DNA from: a virus
Strand: one strand, 5' to 3'
Virus record (IMG/VR): IMGVR_UViG_3300042453_002354
Location: 62,001-126,000 of that record
Length of the DNA: 64,000 nucleotides
Shown: positions 7,469-39,400 of the stretch, piece by piece
Position numbering within the stretch: the first letter of the stretch is position 1
Layout: the number at the start of each line of letters is the position of its first letter
The notes under the pieces: generated by a model
The model's input: the letters and a program-made list of their open reading frames with translations, nothing else
Told to the model about the DNA's origin: nothing
The model's database searches: none
Position numbers and translations under genes: made by a program

Positions 7469-7476
7469 TATTTATA
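7469..7476 (-). promoter_or_regulatory. Late promoter of gp23 (TATAAATA)
   Basis: Perfect TATAAATA on the minus strand, 45 nt upstream of the gp23 ATG. Confidence 0.85.
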
Positions 7477-8884
7477 AATTTCTTTTTTTGAAAGCATCAA
7501 TATATTGTTCGACCTCATAATTTGACTCGCCAGTTTGTTCTGTCAAGTTCATGCCACTGGTTATCATTCTTTTATTTGCAGTTTTGTTTCCACCCTTTGC
7601 AAAAAACGACTTTTTAATTGTTAGAACTTTTTCTGCAAAATCCTTTTTATTTGTAAAGGCCAAATTTTCCGTTAAGGACACTAATCTTTCGCTATCGGAA
7701 GATGTCAAACCTTCACAAGCCCTTTTGACGATTAAACTCTTTGAAGTTTCCTTTAGAGTCTTTGTCAAATGAATATTCTTTTTGGTTTGTTCATTCAGTC
7801 TATTTTCCAATTCTTTGGTTCTCTTAGTGAGACCTTTTACAAGATCTTTCTTGTTCTTTGGAACTTCAACATAATGCTTTTCAAAGAGATCTTTCATTCC
7901 GGACATAAAGTTTTCTGCTATTCTCGATTCAATTGAACGATCAACAGCTACTTTATTTTCTTTGAGCCATTCCGAAACTGCATAATCCAGATATGAAGAA
8001 AGTTTATTAACAATCCTATCTTCTTTCAACTTGCTCTGCTTTTTGTATGCAATTTTATACGCTTCTCTGATCTTTTCTCTTTCCGATGCAATTTTTTCTC
8101 TGACAACAGCTTCAAAAATTGTGGCGGTTTTTCTCTTGAATCCTTCGGAAAGTTTTTGACCCTTGAATAGAGTGTTTAGACTTTCATGCATTTCTTTCTT
8201 CTCATCTTCTTCGGAGCCATATGCTTCCTTCATTTCTTCTTCGTCTTCGTGACTAGATTCATGCATTTCTTTCTTTTCATCTTCTTCGGAGCCATATGCT
8301 TCCTTCATTTCTTCTTCGTGATCTTCTTCCTCTTCTTCTTCTTTCATTTCCTCTTCGGATTCTTCTTTTAAGGATTTGAATTTCTTATTACGCTTCTTGA
8401 TCGAGGTAAGAGCTTCGTTGACGAATTTTTCCATATCTTCTTCGTCTTCTTCCTCTTCTTCTTCTTCTTTTTCTTCTTCTTCTTTTAGTCCTGGAACTTC
8501 TGGATCGGGTAATATTTGATCACTTCCAAGATCTAAATCGGCTTCATCTCTTTCCTCTTCGCCACCAATAAGTTTTAGAAGTTCTTCATCCGGAACCTCG
8601 TCCATAAAACCCAAATCGTGTACAGGAAGTTTTTCGTTATAATCAGAATCGGAAAACTCTTCTTCTAAATCTTCTTCCTCTTCTTCGTCTTCTTCCTCTT
8701 CGGAGAGCTTATGCATCTCTTCTTCTTCATCTTCTTCTTCGGAAAGTTCATCCTTTTCCATATCTTCTTCCTCTTCCTCCATAAAAGAAGATAGTTCACC
8801 TTCAGGCACTTGTTTCTTATGGCCCAAATCATGAACTGGTAAAGAAATTGCTTCTTGTATCAGTTTGTTCAATTTGCTAGACAT
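7472..8884 (-). CDS. 22: Prohead core scaffold protein gp22, acidic-expanded
   Basis: Internal scaffold for prohead assembly, degraded by gp21. The C-terminal half (from about residue 240) is helical and Lys/Glu-rich with long heptad-like stretches, typical of gp22. The N-terminal half is extraordinarily acidic: long runs of Glu/Asp, two LPVHDLG motifs (about 15-21 and 87-93), and a near-exact tandem copy of a MKEAYGSEEDEKKEMHES unit. 470 aa against 269 in T4 gp22, so the acidic part may also replace the acidic core proteins gp67/68. The start is supported by AGGAG 8 nt upstream. Located directly upstream of gp23, as in T4. The low-complexity region could vary in length between relatives. Confidence 0.85.
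   Translation of the reverse strand: MSSKLNKLIQEAISLPVHDLGHKKQVPEGELSSFMEEEEEDMEKDELSEEEDEEEEMHKLSEEEEDEEEEEDLEEEFSDSDYNEKLPVHDLGFMDEVPDEELLKLIGGEEERDEADLDLGSDQILPDPEVPGLKEEEEKEEEEEEEDEEDMEKFVNEALTSIKKRNKKFKSLKEESEEEMKEEEEEEDHEEEMKEAYGSEEDEKKEMHESSHEDEEEMKEAYGSEEDEKKEMHESLNTLFKGQKLSEGFKRKTATIFEAVVREKIASEREKIREAYKIAYKKQSKLKEDRIVNKLSSYLDYAVSEWLKENKVAVDRSIESRIAENFMSGMKDLFEKHYVEVPKNKKDLVKGLTKRTKELENRLNEQTKKNIHLTKTLKETSKSLIVKRACEGLTSSDSERLVSLTENLAFTNKKDFAEKVLTIKKSFFAKGGNKTANKRMITSGMNLTEQTGESNYEVEQYIDAFKKRNL
8183..8319 (-). repeat. 75-bp-period tandem coding repeat in gp22
   Basis: Two 62-nt units (8183-8244 and 8258-8319) differ at one base and are separated by 13 nt. They encode a duplicated acidic module of the scaffold. 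The near identity at DNA level indicates recent duplication or ongoing homogenisation. Confidence 0.85.
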
Positions 8885-9373: not shown

Positions 9374-10363
9374 ATGAAAAAAATACTAATAATTGCTATG
9401 TTATTAATGTGCAATCTGGCATATGCAAAACCTCAGTATAGAGGATTTATGCTAGGGGATACGAGTTTACAAAGTTTATCCGATGCTAAAGCATTGGGCG
9501 TTAATATATTCAGACATCAGATTTTCGTTTCTCATATGAATGAACAAAACAAAGAATCTGTAATGAATGATGTATTCACGGTTTTAGATCCGATAGTAAA
9601 TTTTTGTTTGACTAATAATGTTAAATTGGTAATTGATCTACATCAACCGCCTGGAGGTATGAAACAAATCTCTCACAACAGATCCGATTCGGCGCATTTT
9701 TGGGACAGGAAACTTCAAAATTTAGTTATTTTCTTTTGGAAAAGAATATCAGAAAGATATAGTAATAATTCCGTATTATATGGATATGATTTATTAAATG
9801 AACCGGCATACCGATTACAACAGTGTAAACATTGCTATACGCTGAACGGATTATATCTAAAACTAAAAAAGGAAATTCGTAAATTTGACACACAAACTGA
9901 TATAATTTTAGAACCATCATTTGGCAAAAGTTCTACTTTGAAGTTTTTAAAACCATTAAAGGATGATAGAGTAATCTATAGTATACATTGGTACTCGCCA
10001 ATGAAAATAACACATCAAACACTTTTTAATTTTTCAGAACTGATTGAATATCCAAATAAAGAATACAATAAAAATGTATTAAAATCTGAAATGAGAACGG
10101 CAATAAATTTTCAGAAAAGATATAACGCCAGAATGTATATCGGCGAGTTTAGTTGTATTAGATGGGCAAAGAATTCCTCCGCAAAATTTTATATTAGGGA
10201 TGTAATATCAATCTTTGAAAAATTAGGATGGGATTGGTCTTATCACGCTTGGCGTGAATATGATGGATGGTCGCCGGAACACAATTCTGATATGAATGAT
10301 AAAAGTTGGAAATCAACAACGCCAGTATTGGAAATACTAAAAAAGCATTTTTCGCTGAACTAA
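9374..10363 (+). CDS. Secreted glycoside hydrolase family 5-like enzyme
   Basis: Predicted extracytoplasmic glycosidase with a TIM-barrel fold. Seen in 329 aa: a classic signal peptide (residues 1-18, cleavage after AYA); IDLHQPPGG at 88-95; the GH5 acid/base motif N142-E143-P; HWY at 205-207; and the candidate nucleophile E258 in YIGEF. These lie in canonical GH5 (clan A) order with a typical single-domain length. It is encoded on the plus strand against the surrounding head genes, between gp22 and gp21, with a shared bidirectional terminator at its 3' end. The substrate (beta-glucan, mannan, capsule or exopolysaccharide) cannot be read from sequence. No tail-attachment domain is visible, so free secretion or periplasmic action is inferred. 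Confidence 0.9.
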   Translation: MKKILIIAMLLMCNLAYAKPQYRGFMLGDTSLQSLSDAKALGVNIFRHQIFVSHMNEQNKESVMNDVFTVLDPIVNFCLTNNVKLVIDLHQPPGGMKQISHNRSDSAHFWDRKLQNLVIFFWKRISERYSNNSVLYGYDLLNEPAYRLQQCKHCYTLNGLYLKLKKEIRKFDTQTDIILEPSFGKSSTLKFLKPLKDDRVIYSIHWYSPMKITHQTLFNFSELIEYPNKEYNKNVLKSEMRTAINFQKRYNARMYIGEFSCIRWAKNSSAKFYIRDVISIFEKLGWDWSYHAWREYDGWSPEHNSDMNDKSWKSTTPVLEILKKHFSLN

Positions 10364-10397: not shown

Positions 10398-10805
10398 TTA
10401 CAACTTAAATATCTTATTGCTTCCGTTGTCCCATTGTACTGTAATATCACCACCATTTGGCGTAACTGGAAGTCCTGAAGCTATGTCAATATATGCTATC
10501 AGTCTCGATGAAGCCTCTACACCAGTATCCTGCCATATTACCAAGGCCTCGGAAACATCTCCCGTAACTGAAGTGAATAGAACATCAGCAGCATCAGCAA
10601 CACCAGAAGCGGCCGTCTTCGATGATAAATTACCAGAAGATGCGATTCTAGCCGCTAAAGGAACTGAACTGTAGAATTGATCAGTGCTTAGGTTTGCGGT
10701 ATAATCATTGGTATCGACGAGAGTGACTTTTATATTATCATTCAGCCAATCTATATCACCAGTTAAAAAGGCTTCTCTACCTTTGTCGTAAAGTGCATTT
10801 GCCAT
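10398..10805 (-). CDS. Conserved phage structural-type protein (ALYDKGREAFL family)
   Basis: 135 aa beginning MANALYDKGREAFLTGDI, a start I recognise from a family of small virion-associated proteins common in tailed phages. The rest is beta-rich (ITVQWDNGSNKIFKL at the C-terminus). No enzymatic motif. SD AAGGA lies 7-8 nt before the ATG and a perfect late box is at 10865-10872. It converges with the GH5 gene. The exact location in the virion is unknown. Confidence 0.7.
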   Translation of the reverse strand: MANALYDKGREAFLTGDIDWLNDNIKVTLVDTNDYTANLSTDQFYSSVPLAARIASSGNLSSKTAASGVADAADVLFTSVTGDVSEALVIWQDTGVEASSRLIAYIDIASGLPVTPNGGDITVQWDNGSNKIFKL

Positions 10806-10864: not shown

Positions 10865-10872
10865 TATTTATA
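10865..10872 (-). promoter_or_regulatory. Late promoter (TATAAATA)
   Basis: Perfect TATAAATA on the minus strand, 60 nt upstream of the 135-aa structural-type gene. Confidence 0.75.
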
Positions 10873-10886
10873 CTCAATAAAATTGA

Positions 10887-11102
10887 CTATTCCGATACCA
10901 ATTCGGCATCAACTAGAGTTTTGAATTGTTGAATGTTTACAAAAATTTTTTCTGACACTTCATTCTTAAAGTAACCTTCATTACATTCAGAACAAAAATC
11001 ACCTTCTACATTCTTAATTGTGGCAGTTTCATTTTTGTATGTATAATACAAATCTCGACAGTCACGAATTAATTCACCATTTGAACACGCAAAACATTTC
11101 AT
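10887..11102 (-). CDS. Stand-alone MqsA/YgiT-type zinc-binding domain
   Basis: 71 aa. The cysteine pairs C3-x-x-C6 and C37-x-x-C40 match in number and spacing the zinc site of the E. coli antitoxin MqsA, and GELIRDCRDLYYTYKNETATIKNV and the FVNIQQFKTLVDAELV tail also resemble its N-terminal, toxin-binding domain. The protein stops where MqsA would begin its DNA-binding HTH domain. It is ATGA-coupled to the upstream 150-aa gene and expressed from a late promoter. A role in neutralising a host MqsR-type toxin is a hypothesis. It could instead be one of the generic YgiT zinc-finger proteins of unknown partner. Confidence 0.75.
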   Translation of the reverse strand: MKCFACSNGELIRDCRDLYYTYKNETATIKNVEGDFCSECNEGYFKNEVSEKIFVNIQQFKTLVDAELVSE

Positions 11103-11551
11103 CTTCTGTACCTATAAACAATAAATTTGTAATTTCTCTTTTGTATTCTGACAATTTCTCTTGGTTTCACGCCATGATTTACTATCATGTGCTGACCTAT
11201 TGCTTCCTGACTCAGTATTGATGTGCCAGGTTCAATTTCCATTTGAACGGATGGAACACCAAAGAACTCCTGAGAATATATCAAATCTTTTTTACAGTCA
11301 AATAAATCATTATCGCCAAAAAAAGATTCTTCGGTTGGAATGCCAAATGCGGATATTAATTTTGGTTGTGGTATTATATCTGGGTCGCCTAGACTTTCTT
11401 CTGATTCTATTTCTAGAATTATTAGATAGGTCTCGCCACTTAAATCTAAATGTGGAAATATTGTACTATTATTAATTTCTGGAAAGACTTCAGAAACAAA
11501 CAATAGTTTAAATGAAGGTACTTGAGTTGTAGATAATATTTGTTCACTCAT
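11099..11551 (-). CDS. Uncharacterised protein coupled to the MqsA-like gene
   Basis: 150 aa with no motif I recognise. The first two thirds are rich in acidic and hydrophobic residues (LIILEIESEESLG); the C-terminus is basic (REIVRIQKRNYKFIVYRYRR). It does not resemble the 98-aa MqsR toxin. A GATAAATA late box lies 35 nt upstream. The stop overlaps the next start by 4 nt. Its place in a head-gene region suggests a virion or assembly role, but nothing in the sequence proves it. Confidence 0.6.
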   Translation of the reverse strand: MSEQILSTTQVPSFKLLFVSEVFPEINNSTIFPHLDLSGETYLIILEIESEESLGDPDIIPQPKLISAFGIPTEESFFGDNDLFDCKKDLIYSQEFFGVPSVQMEIEPGTSILSQEAIGQHMIVNHGVKPREIVRIQKRNYKFIVYRYRR

Positions 11552-11585: not shown

Positions 11586-11593
11586 TATTTATC
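11586..11593 (-). promoter_or_regulatory. Late promoter (GATAAATA)
   Basis: GATAAATA on the minus strand, 35 nt upstream of the 150-aa gene that is coupled to the MqsA-like gene. Confidence 0.65.
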
Positions 11594-11611: not shown

Positions 11612-12271
11612 TTATTTTAAAGATTTTAGGAATTTTTCAAAAGCCTTTATCGCCAAATCTTCTCTAATTGATTTTTTCACTATTGGTTTTGTTATTTGTT
11701 GTTTAATTTTTTGCAATTCTCTTTCTACGATTTTGCCATTATTCCAAACCCATTCTTTTCCTTCTAGTATTCCTTCAACAAACGCATCAGGAGCACTAGG
11801 ATCTGCAACGACATCAACTGTGGCCAAATAATAATCGTCTTGAACTTCTTGTAAATTATTATCTATTTCTTTTAAACTACCCATACCACGAGAAGAGACA
11901 CCCAACTGAACTCCTTCATCAATGAAGGCTTTAACTATTTTTCCAGTTGGTGTGTCTAAAATTTTAGCTCTGCCAATAAAATTGCTACCATCTTCTCGTA
12001 TGGATGTAATCATATGAGAAACACGATCAAGATTAATCGTAGGTGTTTCAGGATGATTCAATTCGCCAAGTGCTCTGTTTTTGGATACTGCTTCTTGAAT
12101 ATATCTATTAACTTCTTTTTGAAGAACAGGATGTGGATATATCCTTCCATTCCTGTTTTCTAAATCTGCTTGGAGAAAAATACCTTCTATGAAGTAGTTT
12201 TTTCCAGGTTTATTTTCTTCCTGTAAAATTTCAACTTTTACATTTTCGTAGATTTCTCTTATGAGTTTCAT
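11612..12271 (-). CDS. 21: Prohead core protease gp21
   Basis: Serine protease (herpesvirus-assemblin/HK97-type fold) that cleaves gp22, gp23 and itself during head maturation. 219 aa (T4 212). Seen: NRNGRIYP near 39-46, catalytic His in GELNHP (H73) and catalytic Ser in GVSSRG (S126/S127), in the correct order and spacing. It follows the 81-aa gene by 6 nt and gp20 further upstream. Unlike T4, gp22 does not follow directly: a 2.7-kb accessory island intervenes. Confidence 0.95.
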   Translation of the reverse strand: MKLIREIYENVKVEILQEENKPGKNYFIEGIFLQADLENRNGRIYPHPVLQKEVNRYIQEAVSKNRALGELNHPETPTINLDRVSHMITSIREDGSNFIGRAKILDTPTGKIVKAFIDEGVQLGVSSRGMGSLKEIDNNLQEVQDDYYLATVDVVADPSAPDAFVEGILEGKEWVWNNGKIVERELQKIKQQITKPIVKKSIREDLAIKAFEKFLKSLK

Positions 12272-32998: not shown

Positions 32999-35575
32999 TT
33001 AAATCTTTATAATATAATTTAATACTATGTATGGTGGGTTTGCGGAGAAACTTGTTCCGGGCCCTGGCGCAGAAATCTGTCCTGTGGTATTTGTAGATCT
33101 ACCTAAAGATGTGATATTACTATCACCAGAAACGCCTCCTGTAACCTTTCCTATCTTACCAGTGAAAGATCCGGTTGGATGAGTATGCTCTCCGTTACTT
33201 GAGCTATTACCAGTAAATGCAGGAATATTTATTGTATGCTGGTGAGAGGAATTAGTTCCTGGTACAGTACCTCTTACAACGTGGTCGTGTGTAGAACCTG
33301 TTGTGCTTATTGACACAGAAGACAAATTGTGTGTATGTGTAGCACTTTCTGTTGTAGTTGTTACGGTTAAATCGTGATCGTGATCTCCATCATAATTGGC
33401 CGAATTCGCTCTTAAATTTTTATCCGAAGACAATCCACTGCTTACAGTTCCAATCACAAAGTGATAATTAGTCGATGACCCAATATTTCCAGCACGTTCA
33501 ATATCAATCGTTGAAACTGAGTGAGTATGATTTGCAAGTCCAGTACCAGTTTCTGTAATTGCATCGGCGGCGTGTGTGTGATTAACTGAGTTTGCGCTAG
33601 TGGTTCCTGATAATTCGTGAGTATGTGCAGGATTTCTAGCTGATAAAACCCCAGAGATTGCCAATTGTTCAGATGATGCAAAAACTTGTCTACTCACTGA
33701 AGATGTGTCACCTACGCTACCCAGAACGTGTTCGTGTGATCCTTCTGTTAAAGATGTTGAAAATGTGGTATGAGTGTGTGACGTTGAAGTACTATGAGTA
33801 CCAGAATTTACAGTAATCGCTAAATTTGATCCATTTGATATGTTATGTTCGTGATGATGAGCAGGGACTAAATGAGTGTGTGAGTCATCGTGTGTATGAT
33901 CGGGTAATTCGTGAAAATGATCGAACTGGCCTCCTGTGGCACCCAGAATGTTTGTAGGTGCCGATGCAGATTTACCGATAGGAATTCTTTGTCTTAAATC
34001 TGGAACATTAAAACTTGTTCCGGCAACGCCTCCATATTTTACTCCTATAACGCTATATAGCGAAGGATACAAGCTAGAAGAATAACTCGATCCATCACAT
34101 AATAACCATCCTGGTGGTGCAGTTTCGCCGCCAAATTGTATTATACCACCTATAGGAAACCCAAACTCAAGTAATTGTACTCTATCTTCTAAATCTGATA
34201 TGTCAACACCATCTACAACTCCACCAACTGTTATATCGCCAGTAACGTTTAATGTAGGTGTTGATATATTTCCTGAATCGATGGTGATCGATTGACCAAC
34301 AACGGATTCATCAACTTTAATTGGGCCATTTAAATGTAATTCTTTAAATGGGTTTGCAGTAGTACCCAAATCTTTTGGTGATGCTGGAATGATATCACCA
34401 TTAATACTAAAGTTTGTTGGTGATGTTAAGACCACAGAATTTGACGTATTCAATTTTACCAAATCAACGGCAGTTCCAGTGGAATTTTTTGATCTTAATG
34501 CTTGATTGTTATTCAGTAAAATTTTACTACCATTTACCGCATCGTCGGCAATTTTAGTTGAAATGACTGCACCATCTACTAATTTTGCAGTGCTTACTGA
34601 ATCATTTTGTAGTTCATAAGAACCTACCGAACTAGGAGGAACTACCAGTGCACTTTGATTTGGCGAGTATAGTGCTCTTCTGGAAACTGTAGAGAATCCT
34701 AAGTGTAAAATTCTTATTATTTTACCAACAGCGGGAGCAACATCAAATGTTATTCTGTCGAAAACTCCAGAACCCGATGAAGTTTCTGTCAAAGACCAAG
34801 TTCCTGAAGAAAATCCTAAACTATCACCATCTACTATCACACCATCAACGGTAACTAATAATGACTTAGAATCTATTGCAGGTTGTGAAAGTGAAAAATT
34901 AACTTGTGAACCTGTTCCGGTATGTCTATCAACTACAAAATTTCTAAGATTTTGTTGTAATTGATCTGGACCCACAGAACCGGCAGTAGGAACAAAATTA
35001 TATGTCGCTTCTCCTCTGTGAAGAACATAAATTTTTTCTTCTTCTTTTGGTGCTGAACTAAATCCAATTTGTTTATTATATAAAGATCCTATACCAGAAA
35101 TTGTGTAATCTGTTCCTGGTTGTAGAACTTCCCAATTGTCATAATATCCGTGAATTATTTCTACGTTTACATCACCGCTATCTGCTGGTAATATATTTCC
35201 ATCGACTGTTATAGAAATATCAGTTCCATTATAATCTACCGCTGTGACGGCATAAGTTCCTAAGCTATCAACGGATGATGGACCAGCAACTATTAAAAAA
35301 TCGCCAGGAGCAAATCTTGATAATGCTGCCGCTAAATCTTGATCTGTTGTTGAAATTTGGTCGCCTAAAACAGTATTTTCAAAAACTAAATTTGTTGTAT
35401 TTTTTACTACCGATCTGGTAATGTATTTCTGTCTAATTACGGTTATGTTCTCTTCATAACCGCCTGGCACTTCTTGTGATAAATCAAAAATTGTTTTTGT
35501 GCCATCGGGCACAATATCATCTCTGGTATTTGGACCAAAAATTAGAGGCGATTTTGCATTTCCTATGTAACTCAT
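32999..35575 (-). CDS. Tail fibre with collar domain and His-x-His-rich tip
   Basis: 858 aa. N-terminal half: repeated adapter domains. From about residue 475: a phage tail collar domain (FPIGGIIQFGGETAPPGWLLCDG, then YGGVAGTSFNVPDLRQRIPIG), as in gp12-type short tail fibres. Residues about 545-840 contain more than ten HxH motifs (HTH, HEH, HDH, HQH) spaced through beta repeats. In T4 gp37 and gp12 such HxH sites bind metal ions along the trimer axis, so a metal-stabilised needle-like receptor-binding tip is expected. It may act as the short tail fibre of this phage. Confidence 0.85.
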   Translation of the reverse strand: MSYIGNAKSPLIFGPNTRDDIVPDGTKTIFDLSQEVPGGYEENITVIRQKYITRSVVKNTTNLVFENTVLGDQISTTDQDLAAALSRFAPGDFLIVAGPSSVDSLGTYAVTAVDYNGTDISITVDGNILPADSGDVNVEIIHGYYDNWEVLQPGTDYTISGIGSLYNKQIGFSSAPKEEEKIYVLHRGEATYNFVPTAGSVGPDQLQQNLRNFVVDRHTGTGSQVNFSLSQPAIDSKSLLVTVDGVIVDGDSLGFSSGTWSLTETSSGSGVFDRITFDVAPAVGKIIRILHLGFSTVSRRALYSPNQSALVVPPSSVGSYELQNDSVSTAKLVDGAVISTKIADDAVNGSKILLNNNQALRSKNSTGTAVDLVKLNTSNSVVLTSPTNFSINGDIIPASPKDLGTTANPFKELHLNGPIKVDESVVGQSITIDSGNISTPTLNVTGDITVGGVVDGVDISDLEDRVQLLEFGFPIGGIIQFGGETAPPGWLLCDGSSYSSSLYPSLYSVIGVKYGGVAGTSFNVPDLRQRIPIGKSASAPTNILGATGGQFDHFHELPDHTHDDSHTHLVPAHHHEHNISNGSNLAITVNSGTHSTSTSHTHTTFSTSLTEGSHEHVLGSVGDTSSVSRQVFASSEQLAISGVLSARNPAHTHELSGTTSANSVNHTHAADAITETGTGLANHTHSVSTIDIERAGNIGSSTNYHFVIGTVSSGLSSDKNLRANSANYDGDHDHDLTVTTTTESATHTHNLSSVSISTTGSTHDHVVRGTVPGTNSSHQHTINIPAFTGNSSSNGEHTHPTGSFTGKIGKVTGGVSGDSNITSLGRSTNTTGQISAPGPGTSFSANPPYIVLNYIIKI

Positions 35576-35585
35576 TATTTCATCC

Positions 35586-35930
35586 TTATGTGTTTACGTC
35601 TTCTATTAAAGAACTTTGCACATCAAATAAAATACCAGCGGATTCGGATTTAACTTCAACATAATCTCCAGGTTCTAAAACTAATTTATTACCTTCGATC
35701 AAACAAGGCAAAGCACTTCCTTCTGGAACTGGTGCGCCCTTTACGGTGTATGTTGACACACTAGCGGAACTATCATAAACTCTAACAGAAACCTGACCAC
35801 CACCATTTATGGATGCGACACTAATATGGATAAAATAACTAGTCTTACCACTAGGCGCCGTGTATAACGTTTGCCAAGAAGCACCAACATCTTTCAAATT
35901 TGCATTTTTAAAATTGCTGTTTATTGCCAT
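35586..35930 (-). CDS. Small virion-associated beta protein
   Basis: 114 aa, no named family. The pattern SWQTLYTAPSGKTSYFIHISVA, SVRVYDSS and KLVLEPGDYVEVKSESAG resembles small beta-sandwich proteins that phages carry next to fibre genes, possibly a decoration or attachment subunit. SD AGGA precedes the ATG. It is encoded between the collar-domain fibre and two tiny coiled-coil genes. Function is not determined. Confidence 0.62.
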   Translation of the reverse strand: MAINSNFKNANLKDVGASWQTLYTAPSGKTSYFIHISVASINGGGQVSVRVYDSSASVSTYTVKGAPVPEGSALPCLIEGNKLVLEPGDYVEVKSESAGILFDVQSSLIEDVNT

Positions 35931-35942
35931 ATATTTTTCCTA

Positions 35943-36170
35943 TTAGCTCATCGCTATTGCTCTAGCAAGTAATAATCTATCGTTCTCTAGTGAGGAGAAA
36001 ATTGAATTGATTGCAGAAACTAAGTTTGGTTCCGCTGCTGCAATAAAATTAGGATCAGTTTTAATCCTAATGTCCAAAAGATCAAGATCGCCTATCGCAA
36101 CTCCCAATTCATTTGTTTTTTCCCACCATAATTTTACGGTGGCGTAATCGGGAACTTTAATTTCTGCCAT
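35943..36170 (-). CDS. Small helical protein in the fibre operon
   Basis: 75 aa, mainly helical (WWEKTNELGVAIGDLDLLD; SAINSIFSSLENDRLLLARAIAMS). GGAG lies 7 nt before the ATG. It overlaps the end of the upstream 86-aa gene by 14 nt, suggesting coupled translation. No known family; an assembly factor or a fibre-adapter peptide is conceivable. Confidence 0.6.
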   Translation of the reverse strand: MAEIKVPDYATVKLWWEKTNELGVAIGDLDLLDIRIKTDPNFIAAAEPNLVSAINSIFSSLENDRLLLARAIAMS

Positions 36171-36417
36171 TTAGTTTCTCCAAAACTTGTAATAAAAGAT
36201 CCTTCATACCAAATAATTCTGATTTTATATTTTCAACATCTTGCTGTAGATTATTTATCTTGTCTTTTTGTATTTGTTTTTCTAAATTTTGTTTATCTCT
36301 AATCTTCTTGGCATTTTGATGTGCTTGCCAAGAAGATTCATCCACATTTACAATAGCACCACTTTGCATATCTCTGACGAGACCTTCTCTATCTTTAACC
36401 TTATAGTATCTAGTCAT
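36157..36417 (-). CDS. Small coiled-coil protein in the fibre operon
   Basis: 86 aa with an N-terminal globular part (VKDREGLVRDMQSGAIVNVD) and a coiled coil over about residues 30-82 (KQIQKDKINNLQQDVENIKS). The start overlaps the stop of the 2476-aa gene by one base (TAATG). Possible fibre or baseplate adapter or assembly chaperone; no family recognised. Confidence 0.62.
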   Translation of the reverse strand: MTRYYKVKDREGLVRDMQSGAIVNVDESSWQAHQNAKKIRDKQNLEKQIQKDKINNLQQDVENIKSELFGMKDLLLQVLEKLNGRN

Positions 36418-39400
36418 TATGAATCCAGTGCGATAACTTGAAGATCTTTGACTCTTATTGGTTTAGTAGAATCATTACCAGTTAATACTAGTTTAACTGC
36501 AACTTCACTAAATGGTGCCAATAGAGTTTCTTCATATTCAAAATCATTAAATGTATTACTATCTATCGAATTGCCTGGAAGTTTGTTTCCTACAGGAGTC
36601 AATTTGATGTAACGTACATTATCGAATTTTTCATTTTCATCCGAACCTGACATTTTTGCAAATGCTTCTACAGATTGACCTTCTTGAACATTTGCCAAGA
36701 ATCTAACTTTAAGAGCCGTGGCAGGATGTCTTAGGATCATTCTTTTTGTTACATACTTACAAGGTGCGGTGTGTCCAGTCGGTGATTCTGAACTATAGAA
36801 ATCTTCTATACCCAAAACCGTCACATTAGATGATGTGGATGCCGGATCGTAATCTGAATCATATTTTACTTCAATTCTCAATTTGTAATCTGGTGAAGAA
36901 TCTATAATTTCACTTATTTTTGTAATTTCATAAGTCGCATCATTTTTATTATCGGTAGAATTCATAACTTTAACATATTGTCCAGATCTCATAGAAGAGA
37001 GAACAGATTTACCAATTTCTCTTGCTTGTGCATATGTTGCCAATCCATCACTCGAACAGGTTATTACATCTCTATAGTAAGAAATATCTACGGAAGTACC
37101 TATTCCTGTAAGATCTGCATCAACCCTGACGGTCATACTAGTTGAATCCGGTCTAGTAACACTGATTAATCTTACCGTCTTCTTTGACGTTCCGTTAATT
37201 CCTAACAACATACCAGGAAACAATTCACTCAAGGTCGATATTACTGCATAATTGCTTGTCGAGAACGAGTCGCCAGAAATTGAAACGGTTGCATTTTCTG
37301 CTACCATAACTTCTTCATCACCAAAAGACCAAACATCCAATCCCGAACTTGAACAAGTTGCAGTCGATGATGTGATTGTGAATTTTTTATCCACAGTCAA
37401 CTGACTAGAAACAATGCTTGTAATTTTCCTTAAATTCTTACTGGTTCCACTCTGTACTAATACATAACCACCAACGTGATAGATTGAGGGTGTTGGTACG
37501 GATATTGTATTTGTATTTGCGGTCACACTACAAGTCGCCGAATCTTGTTTCCATCCAAAGAATACATAATCTGTTGGATCGGCAATGGTTCTATACTCAT
37601 CTATTAGTCCTGGATCAGAAACTTTATTTCCGATAATACCAAAATTCGATCTAGAAATGTCCAGAATAGGTGTAATGTTTGGATTATCACTAGACAACGT
37701 TGCTTGTACAAATAAACTCTTTGATGAACCTTCTATATTTCCTGGCGTTGTGATTATTCCAGCTATCGTAGGTTCATCTAGAGTCCATTCTCCTTCGTTT
37801 GCAACACTTGCAATCAATTTAGGTTCCTCGAATATTACATTTTCGCCTGGTTGCACATCTTCAAAATCTGCAACGTCTGGCAAAACATAAGGATTTACAT
37901 CACTGCCGTGCACACCCGAACCAGAAGTAATTCTATAATTATAATTAATTTCAGTTCCTTCTAGCTTCATATCAACTAAATTTGCGGTTATCTCATCAGC
38001 TTGAATGTCTGCTGTTGCGAATATCGTAGAACCACCTGCCGAATAATTAGTTTCTGATGCATCTTTTGGATTTCCATTTTCATCAAAAATTTCTATTGAA
38101 TACGAATCATAGTCCAAAACTGTTACATCGTGATACAATCTAACGGAATCTGAAGACTCGGTATTAATGTATTTTGTATCTATACCGCCGACAGATTCGA
38201 CCAAACCACTAATTTTTACTCTAGGTTTTCTATTGTCTTCCACTCGGTTTCTCATTCCGTGATTTTTGTGGAAAACTTTCAGTACATTACATCCTGCTTC
38301 AACCTTGAATGGATTATTTTTTAATTTGTCGAACGACAAGTTCTCGTTCACCAAAGTTACAATAGGATTTTTACTTATATCAAATTCTGCTTTATGTAAT
38401 TTGAACATTAAATCTGCTTGTTGATCTGGTGTCCAAGTAGAAGAGTTGGCGGACTTCAAAAACACACCATTGTATGATGCGGTATTTTGTATAATGTCGG
38501 CCTTTCCTACAATCGACTGTCCGATTCTGGCATACCAAACTTCATAGTCTTGAGTATTTGCCATAACTACTATAGCATATTCAGATTTTTCTTGTAGATA
38601 TACGGGATAATCAAATTCAAAATAAGTTCCTACAAAACCGGCTTCAAAGTTTGAACTTTGTGGACCATATCCATTCACAAATGATCTAGTTTTAGTATTC
38701 CATTTTGCTTCTGTATCAGGATCTGAAGAGAATGTTTCAAATGGTCCATAGTGATAATGATCTGTTGTTGTCCAAAATGATGGATCACTTTCACTAACCG
38801 TAGGATGTACAGGTACACTAATATACAATCTTCCTACATTTCTACCACTCGGATCGTCTATCGGAGTATCACCATCTATATCGTTTATAACTATTTGGTT
38901 TGGATACAAGTAAGTTTTCGATCCAGGAACTAATTTTGGTCCAGGAACGCCTGCAACGGTTTCTCTAATCTCAACACTAACGGGAATGACAGGATTCGCA
39001 GAGCCTGATCTATCTTTAAATTGAATCGATCTACTTCCAGAACCAACGTGCGGTTTATTTCTAAAATATAAAGTTACACCAGTTATGAATGCACCACCTT
39101 CATCAGTTATGTTTATTGTTTCTGCTATCGGATCGACCCAACAGACTTTGTTCAACTTATAACTATTTTCTGTGCTAGTGCTTATGGTTTTCTCAAAATT
39201 GTCATATTCTGTCGACAATTTGGCACCACGTGTTGAGAGTATAGTTTCTTGTCTCTTTTCTATTAATCCTTTACATTCAAATCTGGCAGAACCTGAGGAC
39301 TCTGAATCAGCTTGAATGTTTTGTGCGCTGTCTATAAATTTTATTACTTTAGTTCCTGTCTTAAAGCTAGGATTATCGGAAGAATCCTCCAAAACTTTAC

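What the first reader, a model, noticed from the sequence alone, without database searches (positions are those of the whole stretch)
10887..11102. Stand-alone MqsA zinc domain: candidate anti-toxin protein
C3/C6/C37/C40 spacing and flanking sequence match the N-terminal, toxin-binding zinc domain of MqsA, yet the protein ends where the DNA-binding half should begin. A phage that carries only the toxin-neutralising half could block an abortive-infection-type MqsR response without affecting its own transcription. It is expressed from a late operon.
Basis: partly seen in the sequence, partly recalled or inferred. Interest (0 to 1): 0.7.

Follow-up and report, generated by a model that had tools for sequence, protein, structure and literature searches.

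The report
Phage-borne MqsA toxin-binding domain
A T4-like environmental virus of bacteria carries, on its own and without a toxin partner, just the zinc-binding half of the bacterial antitoxin MqsA (the half that grips the toxin MqsR), so it is a good but untested candidate for a viral protein that disarms a bacterial RNA-cutting defence toxin.

Summary
ORF 10887-11102(-), 71 aa, is an MqsA N-terminal zinc domain: Pfam PF15731 1.2e-18 over positions 1-69 of 131; C3/C6/C37/C40 present; the AlphaFold model (pLDDT 94) matches 3HI2 chain A (MqsA-N bound to MqsR) at TM 0.87, rmsd 1.0 Å. It stops at the domain boundary and no HTH half follows. It is not a generic YgiT finger: 86 bits against a profile of MqsR-paired MqsA, 20 bits against stand-alone fingers paired with DUF4258. 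The host record is a near-complete 157-kb T4-like phage with no MqsR or DUF4258 toxin found. In contrast, 79 of the 80 nearest bacterial MqsA are full-length and 72 have MqsR beside them. The gene and an ORFan (11099-11551, ATGA overlap) form a two-gene insert between gp21 and the next head gene, absent in other T4-like phages, behind a T4-late-type motif. Published work shows that isolated MqsA-N neutralises MqsR, and that MqsRAC blocks T2. So a phage antitoxin mimic is the best reading (about 0.5). Against it: the MqsR-facing residues are not specially conserved, the host is unknown, and expression looks late. Probable new member of a known kind, phage-encoded antitoxins.

The parts
10887..11102 (-). 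[quoted passage not shown]
   Evidence: Pfam PF15731 1.2e-18; PDB 3HI2 phmmer 2e-10; AF2 pLDDT 93.8; Foldseek TM 0.87 to 3HI2_A
11099..11551 (-). ORFan of 150 aa, first gene of the two-gene insert, overlapping the MqsA-N start by ATGA (probable translational coupling)
   Evidence: no homologue beyond the same phage species; only a weak PHROG 'minor tail protein' match, 3e-5; uninformative fold, pLDDT 35
11586..11593 (-). GATAAATA, T4-late-promoter-like motif, 42 nt upstream of the 150-aa gene start
   Evidence: motif only, not tested
10865..10872 (-). TATAAATA late-promoter-like motif downstream of MqsA-N, 67 nt before the next gene (start 10805); marks the probable end of the two-gene unit
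11612..12271 (-). gp21 prohead protease, conserved left flank of the insert
   Evidence: Pfam Peptidase_S77 1.6e-39; anchor for 79 relatives
10398..10805 (-). phrog_644 gene, right flank of the insert; directly after gp21 in relatives L042 and L044
   Evidence: phrog_644 2.8e-46
7472..8884 (-). gp22 scaffolding protein; adjacent to gp21 (80 bp or less) in 69 of 72 relatives
   Evidence: Pfam T4_CASP 6.7e-58

Best explanation
The gene is a phage-carried fragment of MqsA that works as an antitoxin mimic. A small zinc-stapled domain is made during infection and binds free MqsR-family RNase toxin of the host as a 1:1 heterodimer, by adding its edge strand to the toxin's beta-sheet as E. coli MqsA-N does. 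It thereby keeps phage mRNA translatable when host shut-off and proteolysis remove the host's own MqsA. Without the HTH half it cannot bind DNA or repress mqsRA; it is a pure toxin sink. Shown here: homology, fold, domain boundary, lack of an MqsR or DUF4258 match in the phage, insertion as a two-gene cassette, presence in five phage records. Shown in the literature for the homologue: isolated MqsA-N neutralises and co-purifies with MqsR, and MqsRAC blocks a T4-type phage. Inferred: that this copy binds a toxin, that the toxin is MqsR, and late expression.
For: Family and fold. More like MqsR-paired MqsA-N (86 bits) than like DUF4258-paired stand-alone fingers (20 bits); E. coli MqsA-N gives 79 and 25. 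Genomic: 72 of 80 nearest bacterial relatives and 12 of 12 full-length viral relatives sit beside MqsR, whereas no MqsR ORF was found in the 157-kb phage record with a profile that found those 12, nor with PF15723 or PF14076 (the PF15723 control rang in no genome, so that call alone is weak). The record ends match over 223 bp at 97%, so it is close to complete. Zinc ligands and core positions carry the bacterial residues (mean frequencies 0.98 and 0.80). The buried interface set keeps its hydrophobicity (FGYFSIF, mean KD 1.49; E. coli 1.13; bacteria 1.39). Present in four further contigs of the same phage species with one amino-acid change, dN/dS about 0.12 on three changes. Literature: MqsR with MqsA-N gives robust growth and a purified 1:1 heterodimer, MqsA-C does not (PMC2791442); MqsRAC inhibits T2 (PMC10783111); T4-like phages already carry anti-TA proteins such as Dmd, gp61.2/AdfA and TifA (PMC10286901, PMC10853763).
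Against: The MqsR-contact positions diverge at least as much as the rest of the protein (interface -2.14, rest -1.48; no bacterial paired MqsA below -1.01; permutation P 0.18, so not significant), and the nearly invariant buried P4 is F. No avoidance of the MqsR site GCT: the phage lies within the range of related phages. The motif suggests late expression, whereas the T2 study describes rapid persistence on phage attack. The host is unknown. Selection evidence rests on three substitutions, in effect one independent comparison. No binding or rescue data.
Confidence: 0.5

Rival explanations
1. Toxin-binding domain re-aimed at another toxin. The MqsA-N fold is kept, but its toxin-facing strand has changed to bind a different small RelE-fold RNase of the host (DUF4258, BrnT or RelE type). 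It is still an anti-toxin protein, but not anti-MqsR.
For: Interface residues are the least conserved functional set, yet remain apolar with more aromatics. Close stand-alone relatives sit directly behind BrnTA (L029, L030) or an RHH protein (L152). Distant stand-alone YgiT fingers pair with DUF4258 toxins.
Against: By profile the protein is clearly on the MqsR-paired side. Interface divergence is not significant against the rest (P 0.18). The partner of the BrnTA-linked fingers is unknown.
Confidence: 0.2
2. Antitoxin of a phage-borne pair: the coupled 150-aa ORFan is its partner (a new toxin or effector) in the toxin-first order seen in mqsRA.
For: ATGA overlap and upstream position copy the mqsR-mqsA layout. 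The two genes came as one insert, absent at this place in 72 relatives with both flanks.
Against: The 150-aa protein has no toxin-family match, no sequence likeness to MqsR at E<1 and a weak match to a phage minor tail protein. A lytic phage has little use for an addiction module. Four-base overlaps are common in phage operons.
Confidence: 0.12
3. A passenger or relic of a captured mqsRA locus with no present role.
For: Cargo insertions occur at this place (a GH5 gene here, a different ORF in L043). Only three substitutions support selection.
Against: No trace of mqsR or of the HTH half nearby. Clean start and stop, all four Cys and nearly the whole core kept across a long branch (2.5 changes per site). 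Kept in five records.
Confidence: 0.1
4. A reused zinc domain with a phage-internal job (head assembly, chaperone-like or translation-related), unrelated to toxins.
For: It lies among head genes and is probably expressed late; the toxin surface has changed.
Against: Related phages build the same head without it (69 of 72 have gp21 next to gp22). The only role shown for this fold, as far as I know, is toxin binding.
Confidence: 0.08

Closest known systems
MqsA (YgiT) antitoxin of E. coli, N-terminal domain (PDB 3HI2, 3GA8; PMC2791442)
   Same: Same fold (TM 0.87, rmsd 1.0 Å), same Cys4 zinc site, ungapped alignment over 70 residues, about 30% identity; ends at the same domain border
   Different: No HTH half, no mqsR neighbour, carried by a lytic-type phage, different MqsR-facing side chains
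MqsA of Comamonadaceae and other Pseudomonadota plasmids and chromosomes (for example Polaromonas pPNAP04)
   Same: Closest sequence group, 42-48% identity, shared YTYK-ET...GDFC motif
   Different: Those are 133-aa proteins directly behind mqsR
Stand-alone YgiT-type zinc fingers paired with DUF4258 toxins
   Same: Antitoxin-like one-domain zinc proteins of about 75 aa without HTH
   Different: 20 bits against 86 bits on competing profiles; toxin gene next door; chromosomal
Phage antitoxin mimics: Dmd (T4, against RnlA/LsoA), AdfA/gp61.2 (against DarT), Gp145 (ICP1, against DarT; PMC11481870), TifA (against ToxN; PMC10853763)
   Same: Small phage proteins without a cognate toxin in the phage that disarm TA defences; several in T4-like phages
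   Different: Gp145 has under 15% likeness to DarG; here the protein is a plain homologue of the host antitoxin domain. The target would be MqsR, for which no phage inhibitor was found in the paper library. Activity is untested

Membership tests
MqsA family antitoxin | N-terminal Cys4 zinc domain (C3, C6, C37, C40 spacing) | tested here: met
MqsA family antitoxin | MqsA-N fold (long two-strand sheet and five-turn helix) | tested here: met
   AF2 pLDDT 93.8; Foldseek TM 0.86-0.87 to 3GN5 and 3HI2
MqsA family antitoxin | C-terminal HTH-XRE DNA-binding and dimerisation domain | tested here: not met
   ends at residue 71; 81 bp to the next gene, no HTH. So not a full MqsA, only its N-domain
MqsA family antitoxin | adjacent mqsR toxin gene | tested here: not met
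   no MqsR ORF in the window or in the rest of the 157-kb record; 72 of 80 bacterial relatives have it
MqsA family antitoxin | binds and neutralises MqsR | not testable with these tools
   interface chemistry kept, identities not
DUF4258-linked YgiT finger antitoxins | closest to that sub-family and next to a DUF4258 gene | tested here: not met
   20 against 86 bits; no PF14076 in the record
Phage-encoded antitoxin mimic | phage gene resembling an antitoxin, without its cognate toxin in the phage | tested here: met
Phage-encoded antitoxin mimic | neutralises a host toxin and restores phage growth | not testable with these tools
   needs rescue and plating assays; host unknown
Phage-encoded antitoxin mimic | accessory: absent from otherwise syntenic relatives | tested here: met
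   gp21-gp22 gap 80 bp or less in 69 of 72; L042 and L044 lack the two genes; L043 carries another ORF

The most novel reading that the evidence does not exclude
A T4-like phage took only the toxin-gripping half of a host antitoxin, changed its contact face, and uses it with the coupled 150-aa ORFan as a two-gene counter-defence cassette that disarms MqsR and possibly other RelE-fold RNase toxins. That would be the first phage inhibitor of MqsR and a case of counter-defence by domain amputation of a host antitoxin.
Probability: 0.15. Interest if true: 0.75.

Novelty: new member of a known kind. Interest (0 to 1): 0.5.

Why it matters
MqsRAC is a proven defence against a T4-type phage, yet no phage inhibitor of MqsR was found in the literature searched. 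A natural, toxin-free MqsA-N in a T4-like phage gives a specific, cheap test of whether phages counter MqsR by borrowing the antitoxin's binding half. If true, it shows a simple route to antitoxin mimics (drop the DNA-binding half, keep the grip) and supports a defence role for mqsRA in nature. If the protein binds another toxin, it tells how this fold changes partner.

Tried and rejected
(1) Frameshifted full-length MqsA: no HTH remnant in the 81-bp gap or past the stop. (2) Loss of the DNA-contacting basic turn 23-RGRK-26 as a phage adaptation: rejected, because the bacterial relatives also read KGET there. (3) Generic or DUF4258-type YgiT finger: rejected by profiles. (4) Avoidance of the MqsR site GCT: coding-strand ratio 0.75 over long genes, but 0.84 in the shared region with 8 of 34 related phages lower, so no signal. 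(5) Interface conservation as positive evidence: it failed. (6) 150-aa ORFan as MqsR-like toxin: no similarity; the single-sequence AF2 model is useless (pLDDT 35). (7) Cyanophage host: no psbA; the host stays unknown although gp20 is nearest to cyanophages at 43-45%. (8) Tree of 70-aa domains: the phage is a long branch with a weakly supported position. (9) PF15723 search of the own genome: its control rang nowhere, so a local MqsR profile with 12 positive loci was used instead. (10) MqsA-N in cultured phages: none close; only three distant full-length MqsA-like ORFs in other phages and no E. coli-like MqsR.

Full report
What was checked. The ORF at 10887-11102 (-) is real: ATG start, 71 codons, TAG stop. 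Its product matches Pfam MqsA_antitoxin at 1.2e-18 over positions 1-69 of the 131-position profile, the NCBIfam YgiT finger above its cut-off, and four E. coli MqsA entries in the PDB without a gap over residues 1-70. The four zinc cysteines are at 3, 6, 37 and 40. A model built on 38 aligned relatives has mean pLDDT 93.8, and its best solved matches are full MqsA (3GN5), the isolated N-domain (3GA8) and the N-domain bound to MqsR (3HI2 chain A, TM 0.87, rmsd 1.0 Å). In E. coli MqsA the two domains join at residue 68 (PMC2791442). The phage protein ends at 71, and only 81 bp follow before the next gene, with no HTH remnant.

Which kind of finger it is. Stand-alone YgiT-type fingers of about 75 aa are common in some bacteria: in the cyanobacterial genomes searched here, five inspected loci each had a gene of DUF4258 type directly upstream (two confirmed by Pfam). 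That is a different branch. On competing profiles the phage protein scores 86 bits with MqsR-paired MqsA-N and 20 bits with the DUF4258-paired fingers; E. coli MqsA scores 79 and 25. The closest bacterial proteins are MqsA of Pseudomonadota and Acidobacteriota at up to 48% identity. Of the 80 best bacterial loci, 79 are full-length (110 aa or more) and 72 have an MqsR gene found by a local profile. All 12 full-length viral relatives also have MqsR next to them. The one-domain, toxin-free state of the phage gene is therefore unusual in its own branch, though not unique. Fingers of this branch without HTH were also seen in Chamaesiphon (L152) and, next to a BrnT-BrnA pair, in contigs L029 and L030.

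Where it sits. The window is part of a 156,877-bp IMG/VR record whose ends match over 223 bp at 97%, so the genome is close to complete. gp20, gp21, gp22 and gp23 mark it as T4-like. No MqsR ORF was found in the record with a profile that found 12 viral MqsR genes in the same run. PF15723 and DUF4258 searches were also negative, though the PF15723 control rang in no genome. In 69 of 72 related phages with both genes, gp21 and gp22 are separated by at most 80 bp; L042 and L044 have two extra head-region genes there; the window phage has 2.7 kb. The extra parts are a two-gene unit (150-aa ORFan and MqsA-N, overlapping by ATGA) and a GH5 glycoside hydrolase on the other strand. A GATAAATA motif of T4-late type lies 42 nt before the ORFan, and a TATAAATA lies between MqsA-N and the next gene. 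Four other contigs, all of the same phage species at about 96-98% DNA identity, keep the gene with one amino-acid change.

How it most likely works. Brown et al. (PMC2791442) showed that MqsA-N alone, co-expressed with MqsR, allows robust growth and forms a 1:1 complex, while the HTH half does not. MqsR/MqsA/MqsC lowers T2 plating 2,100- to 5,000-fold (PMC10783111). T4-like phages are known to carry small anti-toxin proteins (Dmd, AdfA/gp61.2, TifA). The economical reading is that this phage carries a DNA-binding-free MqsA that mops up MqsR during infection. Shown here: family, fold, domain border, absence of a detected toxin, accessory insertion. Inferred: toxin binding, toxin identity, timing, benefit.

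What speaks against it. If the protein were kept to bind ordinary MqsR, the contact residues listed by Brown et al. should be conserved. They are not: the interface score is -2.14 against -1.48 for the rest, below every bacterial MqsR-paired MqsA in the set (lowest -1.01), and the almost invariant buried P4 is F. The difference from the rest of the protein is not significant (P 0.18), and the buried set stays apolar (FGYFSIF against PSIMSFM in E. coli). A changed partner, or a divergent MqsR in an unknown host, is thus possible. The contact is largely strand-to-strand, so side-chain change does not exclude binding (inference). The phage does not avoid the MqsR site GCT more than related phages. 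The host could not be named. The claim that hosts encode mqsRA is supported only in general: MqsR-paired loci occur in many Pseudomonadota, including MAGs whose record titles suggest lake or reservoir samples (L137, L181).

Verdict. A well-identified gene of a known kind, with one specific and easily tested prediction. About 0.5 for an MqsR-neutralising antitoxin mimic, 0.2 for the same fold aimed at another toxin, and the rest divided among a phage-borne pair with the ORFan, a relic, and a phage-internal role.

Noticed in passing
9374-10363 (+): A GH5 cellulase-family gene (Pfam 2.8e-24) with a signal-peptide-like start sits on the opposite strand inside the head-gene block, between two genes that are neighbours in L042 and L044; in viral contigs only the same phage species was found with it.
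   Followed up: partly
L034:14262-18924 (record 34262-38924): Three RCC1-repeat (beta-propeller) proteins of about 510 aa in tandem, an unusual fold for a T4-like phage.
   Followed up: no
L037:171-941, L037:6054-7325, L038:5860-7119, L038:4608-5333: The same phage carries a trypsin-like protease, a class-III aminotransferase, a C5 cytosine methylase and a zeta-toxin-like P-loop kinase.
   Followed up: no
L029:1872-2630; L030:5432-6201: MqsA N-domain genes without HTH lie directly behind a BrnT-BrnA toxin-antitoxin pair (in L029 with a one-base overlap of the two genes), suggesting a third component or a partner change for this fold.
   Followed up: partly
L152:959-1710 (Chamaesiphon): A cyanobacterial stand-alone MqsA N-domain of 69 aa that keeps the MqsR-facing residues, but with no MqsR within 1.5 kb and a ribbon-helix-helix gene upstream.
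   Followed up: partly
11099-11551 (-): 150-aa ORFan with no relative found outside this phage species apart from a weak PHROG minor-tail match; function unknown.
   Followed up: partly
L043:3466-4122 (-): In a related phage the gp21-gp22 junction carries a different insert, a 218-aa protein with a treble-clef zinc finger (DUF4379), so this junction takes up cargo repeatedly.
   Followed up: no
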